DNA of 64,000 bases from Blautia sp. (GTDB taxonomy: Bacteria > Bacillota > Clostridia > Lachnospirales > Lachnospiraceae): positions 88,423 to 152,422 of the forward strand of contig JALFGN010000065.1 in NCBI GenBank assembly GCA_022777285.1. Reading direction: 5' to 3'. The notes under the pieces were generated by a model. That model did not search any database, was not told the origin of the DNA, and saw nothing but the letters and a program-made list of their open reading frames with translations. The first letter of the stretch is position 1. Each line of letters begins with the position of its first letter. The translations under genes were made by a program, and so were the position numbers. This document shows positions 51,228 through 56,446 of this stretch, piece by piece.

Positions 51228-52421
51228 TTATACTTCTGTTTTTTTACGGTTGTGTTTTGCCAGCAGCTTATTGATTCGCTCAATAGGATTCAACAGTTTG
51301 CTGATGGAGGTATCATGATTTAAGGTATCGATGATAAGGGCAATGTATTTACTCATATCACAGTTTACATAATATTCACGCTGAAGAAGTTCTTCTGTCT
51401 GATATACAAGATTCGTAGTGAGCAGACGGTCAAAATCACCTCTTTCATAAGCCTTATCAAATTTCTCAAGACCATTTGTAAAAAGTCCGAACGTAGCACA
51501 CATAAATATTTTACCTGCCCCTTTTTCTTTCAGAAGAGCGGCTACTTCCAACATGCTGTCTCCGGAAGAAATCATATCATCAATGATGATCATGTTCTTT
51601 CCTTTTACATCAGCCCCCAGAAATTCATGGGCTACAATTGGATTACGTCCGTCGATAATAGTAGAATAATCACGGCGTTTGTAGAACATACCCATATCTA
51701 CACCCAGTACATTTGCAAGGTAGATTGCACGGCTTGTACCGCCTGCATCCGGGCTTATTACCATTAATTTGTCGCTGTCAATTTCCAGGTCGGGTTCTGC
51801 TTTAAACAGACCTTTTATAAACTGATAAGCTGGCTGTACAGTTTCAAATCCGTGAAGCGGAATGGAATTCTGTACACGGGGATCATGCGCATCAAAGGTA
51901 ATAATATTGTCTACTCCCATATTGACCAGTTCCTGAAGTGCGAGTGCGCAGTCCAGAGATTCTCGGCCTGTACGTTTATGCTGACGGCTTTCATACAGGA
52001 AAGGCATAATTACATTGATACGACGGGCTTTGCCGGCAATTGCGGCGATTACACGTTTCAGATCCTGAAAATGATCATCCGGGGACATATGATTCGTATG
52101 TCCGCAAAGTGAGTAAGTGAGGCTGTAGTTGCACACATCCACCATCAGGTAAATGTCATCGCCACGAACAGATTCTTTCAGGAGACCTTTTGCTTCTCCG
52201 GAACCGAATCTTGGTGTTTCTGCATTTACGAGGTAGGAATCGCGAAGATAACCTTCAAATTCCAGGTTGTCAATCTGAGAATAATCCCGGTTCTTTCTCC
52301 ATTTTACGATGTAATCGTTTACCTTGGAGCCGAGTGTATCACAACTTTTCAGTGGAATGATTCCAAGGCGTCCTACTGGGAGAGAATCTAATGGGGTGGT
52401 ATCTTTTGGTGCTGGTGACAT
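51228..52421 (-). CDS. prs: Ribose-phosphate pyrophosphokinase
   Basis: VISPDAGGTSRAIYLANVLG; MIIIDDMISSGDSMLEVAALLKEKGAGKIFMCATFGLF (PRPP-binding loop). Confidence 0.9.
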   Translation of the reverse strand: MSPAPKDTTPLDSLPVGRLGIIPLKSCDTLGSKVNDYIVKWRKNRDYSQIDNLEFEGYLRDSYLVNAETPRFGSGEAKGLLKESVRGDDIYLMVDVCNYSLTYSLCGHTNHMSPDDHFQDLKRVIAAIAGKARRINVIMPFLYESRQHKRTGRESLDCALALQELVNMGVDNIITFDAHDPRVQNSIPLHGFETVQPAYQFIKGLFKAEPDLEIDSDKLMVISPDAGGTSRAIYLANVLGVDMGMFYKRRDYSTIIDGRNPIVAHEFLGADVKGKNMIIIDDMISSGDSMLEVAALLKEKGAGKIFMCATFGLFTNGLEKFDKAYERGDFDRLLTTNLVYQTEELLQREYYVNCDMSKYIALIIDTLNHDTSISKLLNPIERINKLLAKHNRKKTEV

Positions 52422-53425: not shown

Positions 53426-54532
53426 TTATTTATTAAGCAGTTGTTTTTCCAACTCACTTACATCATAAGCACGTTGGTGAAAGTTGTTAAATTTATTTTT
53501 TGAAACAGATGCTTTGGAACGGGGAGCAGCAGAAGAACTGGAAGTTTTTGTCTGACGACGATCTTTGTCCAGTTTTTCGATATCAGATACATGCTGAACG
53601 CCCTGCTTCTTCCAGCTTCTGAGAATAGAATCTGCATAAGCAAAATTCGGCTGTCCGGTTGCCAGAACCGTGCGGCTGCAGGCAACGGATATAATATCCA
53701 GAGTGAAACCGTATTCATTGAGCCAGAGGTTCATATAACGGATTTCTTCATCAACCGGATTTCGGCCTTTGATACCAAAAGCCCGCAGAATAGAAAAATA
53801 ATTGCGGTTGTAAGTATTGGTTTCAGCTTTGGCCTGTTCGACGGTAGTGATCTTCTGTTCTGCCCAGGCAAGAGCAACTGTTTCTATGTAGCGGATACTG
53901 CGGCTGCCTTTCGACACACAGTATTCGATGAGATATTCCATTAAATCGGCTGAAAAATGAAGTTCTTCATAAAAATAAAGAAGTTTGTTAATTTCTGTAG
54001 GAGAAAGTGTTTTACCAAGATACTGTTCTGCTACAAACAGCATCTGGACAACCTCATCCCTGGTTTGCAATTCTTTTATTTTAGAAGGGGATAAAGCGGT
54101 TGTTGTTATTTTTTCAGCGGAAGCAATCCCGGATTTTGGAATACTGGAAGCGGCAGCCGAAGCCGCGGCGGGATTGCCTGTAAGATTTTCTGTATCGGTT
54201 TCTTTGGGAGCAGGAGAGGAAAACGATTCCGGCGATTTTAAGCGTACACCGGTAAGGGAACCTCTTTCATCAAGAAAGAGATCGAGGATTCCTGCCTTAT
54301 CCCAGTATTTTAATGCCCGAAGTACATCATTTTCGGTACAATTAAAAATGTCGGCAATGGAAGACAGTTGAAGCGAAGAAGAAATACCAGAGGCATTTCT
54401 GAGTAAATAAAGATAAACCTTAACAAATTCTCCGTTTGCCTGCGGCATGCAGGTGTCCAGAAAATAGTTGGAGACAAAAGTGAAATCTCCAGGAAAATCA
54501 TTATAAATTGTAAATTGTCCCATTCCCAACAT
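53426..54532 (-). CDS. DnaD-domain replication initiation protein
   Basis: DnaD-like N-terminal FVKVYLYLLRNASG wHTH region and C-terminal domain ...YAEQKITTVEQAKAETNTYNRNYFSILRAFGIKGRNPVDEEIRYMNLW; next to DnaI-like gene. Confidence 0.88.
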   Translation of the reverse strand: MLGMGQFTIYNDFPGDFTFVSNYFLDTCMPQANGEFVKVYLYLLRNASGISSSLQLSSIADIFNCTENDVLRALKYWDKAGILDLFLDERGSLTGVRLKSPESFSSPAPKETDTENLTGNPAAASAAASSIPKSGIASAEKITTTALSPSKIKELQTRDEVVQMLFVAEQYLGKTLSPTEINKLLYFYEELHFSADLMEYLIEYCVSKGSRSIRYIETVALAWAEQKITTVEQAKAETNTYNRNYFSILRAFGIKGRNPVDEEIRYMNLWLNEYGFTLDIISVACSRTVLATGQPNFAYADSILRSWKKQGVQHVSDIEKLDKDRRQTKTSSSSAAPRSKASVSKNKFNNFHQRAYDVSELEKQLLNK

Positions 54533-54649
54533 CCTTTTCTAAATACATCAATTAATATCCGTATTCAGTATAGCACACTATTTTTGAAAAGAGAATAAGC
54601 ATTTTTTTACAAAACATTCAGTCCTGTGTTGGAAAAAGGATGTTCATAA

Positions 54650-54877
54650 TGTGGATAATGTGGATAAAAAAGTGGAAGATTTTTATGGGAAACTTTAAAA
54701 TGTCGAAAAAACCTGTATTTTAAGATACTTTGGTAAATGATGTGAAAAATTTATGTTAACTTTATTCTAAACAAAAAAATCCACATGCATATACGAAATT
54801 GAATGTGTATAAGCATGTGGATAGTGTGGATAACTATAGGAAAATGGCTTAAAACCAATACTTTCCAATGTGGATTA
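54650..54877 (-). promoter_or_regulatory. DnaA-box cluster
   Basis: TGTGGATAA (RC TTATCCACA) at 54650-54658, 54659-54667 and 54825-54833; TTTTTCACA at 54741-54749; TTATACACA at 54804-54812; single-mismatch boxes at 54816-54824 and 54869-54877; all same orientation. Confidence 0.8.
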
Positions 54878-54887
54878 AAATGTGTAT

Positions 54888-56267
54888 TTACATTCCGAGA
54901 AGATTTTCGCCTATTTTATAAACATCTCCGGCACCCATGGTGATAATCAAATCTTCGGCTGTGCAATTTGTCAGCAGGAAATCTTCGATTTCATCAAAGG
55001 TAGGGAAATAATAGGCATCAGTTCCCAGTGCTGCGATTTTGTCCTTGAGAATCTCTGATGAGATGCCAAGGGTATCAGTTTCTCTGGCTGCATAAATATC
55101 TGCCAGAATTACTTTATCTGCCAGAGTCAGAGCCTGGGCAAAATCTTCCATGAGAGCCTTGGTTCTTGTATAAGTATGAGGCTGGAATACGCACCAGGTT
55201 GTCTTATGAGGATAATTTGCAGCAGTACGTAAAGTAGCTGCAATCTCTGTTGGATGATGTGCATAATCATCAATCACAGTAACGCCTCCGACTTTTCCCT
55301 TGTACTGGAAGCGACGGTCGGTACCTCCGAAATGAAGGAGTCCTTTTTGAATATGTTCCAGAGAAAGGCCAAGTTTCATACCAAGAGCAATTACAGCAAG
55401 AGCATTGGACACATTATGGATGCCCGGTACAGAAAGGGAGAAGTGACCAATGGTTTTTCCGTTTCTGACACAGTCAAAAGAACCGTGAGCAAATTCGTCA
55501 AATACAATGTTTTCTGCCTGATAGTCTCCTGCAGTTTTCAGCCCATAGGTAATGATTTCGCAGGGAAGATCCTTTGTGATTTCTTCATAATCCGGGATCT
55601 CACTGTTGATGATCAGTGTTCCGTCAGCAGGAAGCTTCTGGGCAAACAGGCGGAAAGAATGCCGGATATCATCCAGATCTTTGAAGAAATCAAGATGATC
55701 TGCATCAATATTCAGGATGATACTGATTTTGGGGAAAAAGCTCAGGAAACTATTCGTATATTCACAGGCTTCTGTAACAAAAGTTTCAGAAGCACCTACA
55801 CGGATATTTCCATGGATAGCAGGAAGGATTCCGCCTACAGAAATAGTAGGATCGGCATTGGCTTCCAGGAGAATATGAGAAACCATAGAAGTGGTAGTCG
55901 TTTTTCCATGGGTTCCTGACACAGCTACCGGAATATCATAGTTACGCATGATTTGTCCAAGAAGTTCTGCTCGTGTAAGCATAGGAATCTGTTTTTCTTT
56001 TGCACAGGCGAATTCCGGATTATCCGGATGAATGGCAGCTGTGTATACGACAAGCTGGACATCATCTGTAATATTGGAGGCTCTCTGACCGATGTATACA
56101 ACTGCGCCGAGACTTTCCAGATGGTTGGTTAAATCGGATTTTTTGGAATCGGAACCGGATATGCGAAAATTTTCTTTCAGGAGAATTTCTGCAAGACCGC
56201 TCATACTGATGCCGCCGATACCGATAAAATGAATATGCAGTGGTTTATTAAAATCTATTTCATACAT
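54888..56267 (-). CDS. murC: UDP-N-acetylmuramate--L-alanine ligase
   Basis: IHFIGIGGISMSGLAEILL, AVSGTHGKTTTTSMVSHIL, VIDDYAHHPTEIAATLRTA. Confidence 0.96.
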   Translation of the reverse strand: MYEIDFNKPLHIHFIGIGGISMSGLAEILLKENFRISGSDSKKSDLTNHLESLGAVVYIGQRASNITDDVQLVVYTAAIHPDNPEFACAKEKQIPMLTRAELLGQIMRNYDIPVAVSGTHGKTTTTSMVSHILLEANADPTISVGGILPAIHGNIRVGASETFVTEACEYTNSFLSFFPKISIILNIDADHLDFFKDLDDIRHSFRLFAQKLPADGTLIINSEIPDYEEITKDLPCEIITYGLKTAGDYQAENIVFDEFAHGSFDCVRNGKTIGHFSLSVPGIHNVSNALAVIALGMKLGLSLEHIQKGLLHFGGTDRRFQYKGKVGGVTVIDDYAHHPTEIAATLRTAANYPHKTTWCVFQPHTYTRTKALMEDFAQALTLADKVILADIYAARETDTLGISSEILKDKIAALGTDAYYFPTFDEIEDFLLTNCTAEDLIITMGAGDVYKIGENLLGM

Positions 56268-56446
56268 AATACGCTGCTTCCTTTCTTCATGCATTTTTCG
56301 TAAGCAGACAGCAAAAAATGCTGTTTGTAACTGTAAATATTATACATAAAAAAGCGCGTAATGGAAAGTCTTTCTTTTGATTTGGTAAGGCCTAGGTAAA
56401 ATGTCACAAAAACTCGTGTGAAGTCGAAAATAAATTGTTAAAAATG

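What the first reader, a model, noticed from the sequence alone, without database searches (positions are those of the whole stretch)
54650..54877. DnaA-box cluster upstream of DnaD- and DnaI-like primosome genes
Sequence: three perfect TTATCCACA boxes, two TTWTNCACA variants (TTTTTCACA, TTATACACA) and two one-mismatch boxes in 228 bp, all in the same orientation; two pairs are abutting 9-mers with no spacer (54650-54667, 54816-54833). The stretch sits in a 355-bp AT-rich gap between murC and dnaD/dnaI-like genes. Knowledge: DnaA-box clusters outside oriC act as DnaA titration or initiation-control sites (for example in B. subtilis), and oriC itself normally sits by dnaA/dnaN, absent here. Inference: DnaA may directly control primosome-loader expression, coupling initiator level to helicase loading, or the site titrates DnaA.
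Basis: partly seen in the sequence, partly recalled or inferred. Interest (0 to 1): 0.7.

Follow-up and report, generated by a model that had tools for sequence, protein, structure and literature searches.

The report
Phased DnaA-box array at helicase-loader operon
Across almost the whole gut-bacterial family Lachnospiraceae, a cluster of binding sites for DnaA, the protein that starts chromosome copying, sits between murC and the genes for the helicase-loading machinery, with spacings suggesting that DnaA bends this DNA into a loop to control those genes or to count itself.

Summary
In detail: seven co-oriented DnaA boxes lie in the 355-bp murC–dnaD gap, three of them perfect. It is not chance and not local. 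In 98 of 100 sampled Lachnospiraceae genera murC directly precedes dnaD; 87 of these gaps hold at least one perfect TTATCCACA (239 perfect boxes, 0.5 expected; 232 on the dnaD strand). The array has two parts. R1 starts right after the murC stop codon and often forms one arm of the murC terminator. R2 lies just upstream of a conserved extended −10 promoter of dnaD. R1–R2 distances in 47 genera cluster at multiples of about 11.0–11.1 bp; control distances do not. This suggests a DnaA-held DNA loop. It is not oriC: dnaA and the GC-skew switch lie elsewhere. No array was found upstream of dnaD in 38 other Clostridia families. Most likely DnaA controls the dnaD–dnaI–prs promoter through this loop. 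The main rival is a titration or datA-like site; one genome that keeps the array at murC without dnaD supports it, and so does a second conserved array elsewhere. DnaA binding itself is untested.

The parts
54888..56294 (-). murC, upstream gene; the array begins downstream of its stop codon
   Evidence: ORF list; TIGR01082, 474.6 bits against a cut-off of 335.1
54804..54833 (-). R1: boxes TTATCCACA (54825-54833), CTATCCACA (54816-54824, abutting), TTATACACA (54804-54812); start-to-start spacings 9 and 12
   Evidence: the same 9/12 layout right after the murC stop in other genera; in the window R1 starts about 54 nt after the stop
54869..54877 (-). one-mismatch box TAATCCACA near the murC stop
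54773..54822 (-). murC intrinsic-terminator-like hairpin ATCCACATGC / GCATGTGGAT followed by a T run; its 5' arm overlaps an R1 box
   Evidence: RNA fold and coordinates; hairpin in 61 of 94 gaps, R1 box in the 5' arm in 51. The tool's consensus scan did not report it; it allows loops of only 3-8 nt
54741..54749 (-). variant box TTTTTCACA between R1 and R2
   Evidence: not conserved in the Blautia alignment
54650..54667 (-). R2: two abutting perfect boxes; R1 doublet to R2 doublet is 166 bp
   Evidence: conserved in relatives
54590..54595 (-). -35 element TTCTCT of the dnaD promoter (non-consensus, conserved as TTYTCT)
54567..54575 (-). extended -10 TGCTATACT of the dnaD promoter
   Evidence: TGnTAWANT downstream of the last box in 81 of 94 genera, 3.3 expected; sequence checked
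53426..54532 (-). dnaD-like gene (DnaD/DnaB superfamily, two DnaB_2 stretches)
   Evidence: PF07261, 151.6 bits, 2 stretches; TIGR01446
52425..53414 (-). DnaI/DnaC-like AAA+ helicase-loader gene, 11 bp downstream of dnaD
   Evidence: NF005304, 369.8 bits against a cut-off of 215
51228..52421 (-). PRPP synthetase (prs), 3 bp downstream of the loader gene, probably the same operon
   Evidence: NF005299, 589.6 bits

Best explanation
The gap carries a selected, family-wide DnaA-binding array that responds to DnaA and controls the dnaD-dnaI(-prs) promoter. Proposed mechanism: DnaA binds the strong abutting boxes at R1 (murC 3' end) and R2 (upstream of the promoter). Because the sites lie on the same face of the helix, DnaA at the two sites joins and closes a loop of about 75-190 bp around the murC terminator. 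The R2 complex then contacts RNA polymerase at a promoter with an extended -10 and a poor -35, so helicase-loader supply follows the level or nucleotide state of DnaA. Shown here: box sequences, conservation, layout, promoter conservation, phasing, and that this is not oriC. Inferred: DnaA binding, looping, any effect on transcription and its sign (activation guessed from the poor -35 and the upstream site).
For: Sequence: 239 perfect boxes in 98 gaps, 0.5 expected; 232 of 239 on the dnaD strand. All 67 perfect abutting doublets found within 1.5 kb upstream of a listed dnaD are on its strand, 84-579 bp upstream; the reversed control word gave none in 200 genomes. Anatomy: first box 0-3 nt after the murC stop in 74 of 98; 9-bp spacing 145 times, 12-bp 36 times. 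Promoter: TGnTAWANT downstream in 81 of 94 (3.3 expected), with conserved TTYTCT at -35. Phasing: R1-R2 distances periodic at 11.0-11.1 bp (R = 0.65, n = 47; unique distances R = 0.56, n = 30, no null set of 4,000 as high); gap length and distances to the dnaD start are not. Lac loops in vivo fit 11.08-11.60 bp per turn (PMC1762422). In 14 genera with shortened gaps only R1 remains and the last box lies 41, 51, 61-63 (10 genera), 86 or 88 bp from the -10, mostly whole-turn steps. In one genome an AI-2E-like gene lies between array and dnaD on the same strand, array still upstream of both.
Against: No binding, expression or TSS data. In G196 murC keeps four perfect boxes in a gap with a convergent gene while dnaD lies elsewhere without boxes, so the array can exist without a dnaD promoter. 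Several genera with gaps of 2-67 bp have no array, so control of this kind is dispensable. Box-to-promoter phasing is weak once shared ancestry is reduced (unique distances p = 0.04). R1 overlaps the murC terminator, so part of its conservation may be RNA-level. Sister-pair phasing limited to differences over 5 bp is marginal (z = 1.9, n = 14).
Confidence: 0.52

Rival explanations
1. Titration or datA/DARS-like site: the array soaks up DnaA, or changes its nucleotide state, near the origin and so sets initiation timing. Lying at dnaD is secondary.
For: G196 keeps the array at the murC 3' end in a convergent gap without dnaD. A second array of the form box-N44/45-box-box is conserved elsewhere (strict pattern in 47 of 200 genomes), often near trxB/hpf/secA. 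dnaD lies within 3-23% of genome length of dnaA in nine genomes. Six clusters outside oriC in B. subtilis affect initiation timing when all are deleted (PMC5295017; PMC13220808).
Against: Almost invariable place upstream of the dnaD promoter and fixed strand relative to it. Short-gap genera keep boxes at promoter-like distances. Titration needs neither phase nor a promoter.
Confidence: 0.28
2. Both at once: a DnaA-responsive promoter whose site also titrates DnaA, as for some B. subtilis clusters.
For: All of the above fits; B. subtilis clusters upstream of sda, ywlC and yqeG are both DnaA-bound regions and promoters regulated by DnaA (PMC8203912; PMC4447404).
Against: Adds a second role without separate evidence in the same genome.
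Confidence: 0.14
3. R1 is mainly an RNA element (the murC terminator) and its boxes are by-products of the hairpin.
For: An R1 box lies in the terminator 5' arm in 51 of 61 gaps with a hairpin.
Against: It does not explain the abutting first box outside the stem, R2, the strand bias, phasing with R2, or the genera without a detected hairpin that keep R1.
Confidence: 0.03
4. A replication origin or secondary origin.
For: AT-rich DNA with many DnaA boxes next to replication genes.
Against: In Blautia parvula dnaA is at 4.25 Mb, GC skew changes sign there (-0.17 to +0.17) and does not change at the dnaD locus at 3.37 Mb (-0.12, -0.16).
Confidence: 0.02
5. Chance or base composition.
For: The gap is AT-rich.
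Against: 0.5 perfect boxes expected in 98 gaps, 239 seen; conserved layout.
Confidence: 0.01

Closest known systems
Bacillus subtilis DnaA-box clusters outside oriC (sda/yqeG, ywlC, ywcI/vpr, trmE/jag, gcp/ydiF, yydA)
   Same: Clusters of TTATCCACA-like boxes between genes, away from oriC; most are at promoters; deleting six gives early initiation (PMC5295017, PMC13220808, PMC4447404).
   Different: None of the main bound regions listed for B. subtilis is at dnaD, dnaB or dnaI (PMC4447404, PMC8203912). No helical phasing is described in the passages read.
Caulobacter crescentus DnaA regulon (dnaB, dnaQ)
   Same: Predicted DnaA boxes upstream of replication genes, including the replicative helicase gene dnaB, in the DnaA transcriptional regulon (PMC8203912).
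   Different: Caulobacter dnaB is the helicase itself; here the operon encodes the DnaD-like protein and the loader. Unrelated lineage and layout.
E. coli datA, DARS1 and DARS2
   Same: Non-oriC DnaA-box sites that control DnaA activity (PMC5295017, PMC13220808).
   Different: datA needs IHF and drives ATP hydrolysis; here all boxes are direct repeats at a promoter, and nothing is known about nucleotide exchange.
Clostridial bipartite oriC (C. difficile oriC1/oriC2)
   Same: DnaA-box clusters in AT-rich gaps (PMC7561715).
   Different: Those flank dnaA; this site lies 0.14-0.88 Mb from dnaA in nine genomes and has no skew switch in the one tested.

Membership tests
DnaA-box cluster (at least 3 boxes, mean distance under 100 bp, as cited in PMC7561715) | At least three TTWTNCACA-type boxes close together | tested here: met
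   Seven boxes in 228 bp
DnaA-box cluster (at least 3 boxes, mean distance under 100 bp, as cited in PMC7561715) | Box density above chance | tested here: met
   239 perfect boxes, 0.5 expected, in 98 orthologous gaps
DnaA-box cluster (at least 3 boxes, mean distance under 100 bp, as cited in PMC7561715) | DnaA binds it | not testable with these tools
   Needs ChIP or a footprint
DnaA-regulated promoter | Boxes at a promoter of the target gene | tested here: met
   Conserved TTYTCT-17-TRTGnTATAMT downstream of the array in 81 genera; TSS not mapped
DnaA-regulated promoter | Transcript responds to DnaA | not testable with these tools
   Needs an expression assay
Chromosomal replication origin (oriC) | Next to dnaA/dnaN or at the GC-skew switch | tested here: not met
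Chromosomal replication origin (oriC) | DnaA-trio and unwinding element | tested here: inconclusive
   The strict trio pattern was found in 1 of 94 gaps, but also in none of the dnaA/oriC loci, so the test has no power
datA / DARS | Stimulates ATP hydrolysis or nucleotide release by DnaA | not testable with these tools
   Biochemical assay needed
DnaA titration cluster | Deletion advances initiation | not testable with these tools
   Genetic test needed

The most novel reading that the evidence does not exclude
Lachnospiraceae, and perhaps only they, control initiation through two conserved non-oriC DnaA arrays: a looped, helically phased array that sets helicase-loader supply at dnaD-dnaI, and a second array of the form box-N44/45-box-box elsewhere on the chromosome. 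Together these would form a DnaA-counting circuit that stands in for YabA/Hda-type regulators.
Probability: 0.25. Interest if true: 0.8.

Novelty: new variant of a known kind. Interest (0 to 1): 0.62.

Why it matters
How clostridia regulate DnaA is open: C. difficile has no recognised YabA, Hda or DiaA and its DnaA control is described as unknown (PMC7561715). A conserved DnaA array at the helicase-loader operon would tie the initiator directly to the next step, helicase loading, and gives a concrete, testable cis-element in one of the main gut families. The 11-bp phasing also makes a natural record of DnaA-dependent DNA looping that can be tested with half-turn and whole-turn insertions.

Tried and rejected
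Origin hypothesis: rejected by dnaA position and GC skew. Known RNA element: Rfam gave nothing near any gathering score. DnaA-trio search: no power, since it also failed at dnaA/oriC loci. Single tool promoter scan: not informative, 5 sites found and 3.0 expected; the comparative promoter replaced it. dnaA is missing from this fragmented assembly, so oriC was studied in relatives. Pure terminator origin of R1: rejected as a full explanation. Pan-Clostridia conservation: rejected; 39 dnaD loci from 38 other families show no array and no murC upstream, and in the genomes outside the family in which the murC 3' end could be read no comparable array follows murC. The key paper on B. subtilis clusters (Okumura 2012) is not held and was read only through reviews.

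Full report
Observation. The seven boxes are present as described, all on the − strand, the sense strand of murC, dnaD, dnaI and prs. Three are perfect. TTTTTCACA has two mismatches to TTATCCACA but fits TTWTNCACA. In the own genome, a 2.72-Mb, 146-contig assembly, TTATCCACA occurs 68 times against 13 for the reversed word. Only two places have three perfect boxes within 250 bp: this gap and a locus next to phage terminase- and portal-like genes.

Genes. murC is TIGR01082. The dnaD-like protein carries two DnaB_2/DnaD-domain stretches (PF07261, TIGR01446). The next gene is a DnaI/DnaC-type AAA+ ATPase (NF005304), then PRPP synthetase. The gene spacing of 11 and 3 bp suggests one operon (sequence, inference).

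Conservation. A genome-collection search for the DnaD-like protein returned 18 usable loci, mainly Blautia and other Lachnospiraceae; 17 have perfect TTATCCACA boxes upstream. I then searched 200 genomes of the family, one per genus with one exception, and fetched the upstream DNA of 100. murC is directly upstream in 98. 87 of the 98 gaps have at least one perfect box, 67 at least two, 46 at least three; 239 perfect boxes in all, 232 on the dnaD strand, 0.5 expected from a first-order Markov null. Independently, a search for the perfect abutting doublet gave matches in 120 of 200 genomes and none for the reversed word. Of 122 listed doublets in genomes with a listed dnaD, 67 lie 84–579 bp upstream of it, all 67 on its strand. 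Sampling caveat: the 100 genomes were taken from the better-scoring dnaD matches, so distant members of the family are under-represented.

Extent. In 39 dnaD loci from 38 other families of the class, no murC is upstream and no array is present. murC was located in 30 genomes. Outside the family no comparable array follows it where its 3' end could be read; three of those loci have a single one-mismatch box. The doublet itself is present in only 27 of 194 class-level genomes. The array is therefore specific to Lachnospiraceae at this depth of sampling.

Anatomy. R1 starts 0–3 nt after the murC stop codon in 74 of 98 gaps; in the window it starts about 54 nt after it. Typical box starts, counted from the first base of the stop codon, are 3, 12 and 24, so spacings are 9 and 12. 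The 9-bp spacing occurs 145 times over all gaps, the 12-bp spacing 36 times. In 61 of 94 gaps a terminator-like hairpin with a T run follows, and in 51 of these an R1 box is part of its 5' arm. In the window the stem is ATCCACATGC/GCATGTGGAT (54773–54822). R2 is a second doublet or triplet. Downstream of it lies a conserved promoter, TTYTCT–17–TRTGnTATAMT, in 81 of 94 gaps (3.3 expected). The −35 is poor in nearly all genera, which is usual for activator-dependent promoters (established knowledge; inference here).

Phasing. In 47 genera with two doublets, R1–R2 distances run 77, 86–88, 97–99, 108, 120–122, 131, 140–146, 151–157, 164–168, 174–176 and 183–189. The best period is 11.0–11.1 bp with R = 0.65. 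With each distance counted once (n = 30) R = 0.56, and none of 4,000 smoothed null sets reached it. All pairs of perfect boxes give 11.0 bp (unique n = 76, p = 0.001). Controls (gap length, R1 or R2 to the dnaD start) show no significant periodicity. Among phylogenetically independent sister pairs, 21 differ in spacing and the differences cluster near multiples of 11 (z = 2.7). Restricting to differences over 5 bp leaves 14 pairs and a marginal result (z = 1.9). Several variants of this test were run and it was not planned in advance. Measured lac loops in vivo fit 11.08–11.60 bp per turn, more than 10.5 for free DNA (PMC1762422), so 11.0–11.1 is what selection for loop closure in living cells would give. 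Distances from the last perfect box to the −10 are also periodic near 10 bp, but weakly when each distance is counted once (p = 0.04). In 14 genera with gaps under 165 bp only R1 remains, and the last box (up to one mismatch) to −10 distances are 41, 51, 61–63 (ten genera), 86 and 88.

Decoupling. In G031 an AI-2E-transporter-like gene sits between the array and dnaD on the same strand; the array stays right behind murC, upstream of both. In G196 murC is followed by four perfect boxes and then a convergent PTS enzyme I-like gene, while dnaD lies on another contig without boxes. This one case argues for a role of the array that does not need dnaD, or for decay not yet complete. Genera with gaps of 2–67 bp have no array at dnaD; at least two of them (G011, G018) still have the second array.

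Not an origin. In Blautia parvula dnaA is at 4.2525 Mb with boxes around it, and GC skew goes from −0.17 to +0.17 there; at dnaD (3.37 Mb) it stays at −0.12 to −0.16. In nine genomes dnaD is 139–883 kb from dnaA, 3–23% of genome length.

A second array. Most other doublets belong to one further conserved element: TTATCCACA–N44/45–TTATCCACATTATCCACA, with a weaker TTAT(A/G)CAC-type box 12 bp before the doublet. A strict pattern found it in 47 of 200 genomes, with a few matches that are the dnaD locus itself. Context in 20 fetched loci: trxB-like, a secreted protein, hpf and secA. In the own genome it lies at C66:59209–59280, outside the window. It was not the given finding but bears on the titration rival.

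Judgement. That this is a real, selected DnaA-box array is very likely (about 0.95). That it mainly controls dnaD–dnaI through a DnaA loop is the best single account (about 0.52); titration or datA-like action follows (0.28), both together 0.14. Among the main DnaA-bound regions listed for B. subtilis none is at dnaD, dnaB or dnaI (PMC4447404, PMC8203912); boxes upstream of the helicase gene dnaB in Caulobacter are the nearest parallel. My literature searches found no description of this array, but most subscription papers are not held.

Noticed in passing
own genome G000:C66:59209-59280 (L023:4210-4281), outside the window; L137-L156 in other genera: A second conserved DnaA-box array, TTATCCACA-N44/45-TTATCCACATTATCCACA with a weak TTATnCACn box 12 bp before the doublet, often between trxB-like, secreted-protein, hpf and secA genes. 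Roughly 39-66 kb from dnaA in three complete or near-complete genomes (G036, G139, G086).
   Followed up: partly
own genome G000:C1:4837-4868 (L022): Three perfect DnaA boxes 12 and 11 bp apart just after phage terminase- and portal-like genes: a prophage carrying a DnaA-box cluster.
   Followed up: no
window 54773-54822 and 61 of 94 related gaps: DnaA boxes built into the stem of the murC transcription terminator, so DnaA binding and termination share the same bases.
   Followed up: partly
window 53426-54532: The dnaD-like protein has two DnaB_2 (DDBH2) stretches, possibly closer in layout to B. subtilis DnaB or C. difficile CD3653 than to single-domain DnaD (from memory); the name dnaD is approximate.
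   Followed up: partly
L140 and L153 (oriC regions of G193 and G106): Very dense oriC box arrays (more than 15 perfect boxes), while other genera in the family have almost no perfect TTATCCACA within about 1.5 kb of the dnaA C-terminal domain (L205, L206, L208).
   Followed up: no
whole genome G000: dnaA is missing from the assembly (no PF08299 match), although completeness is 93%.
   Followed up: yes
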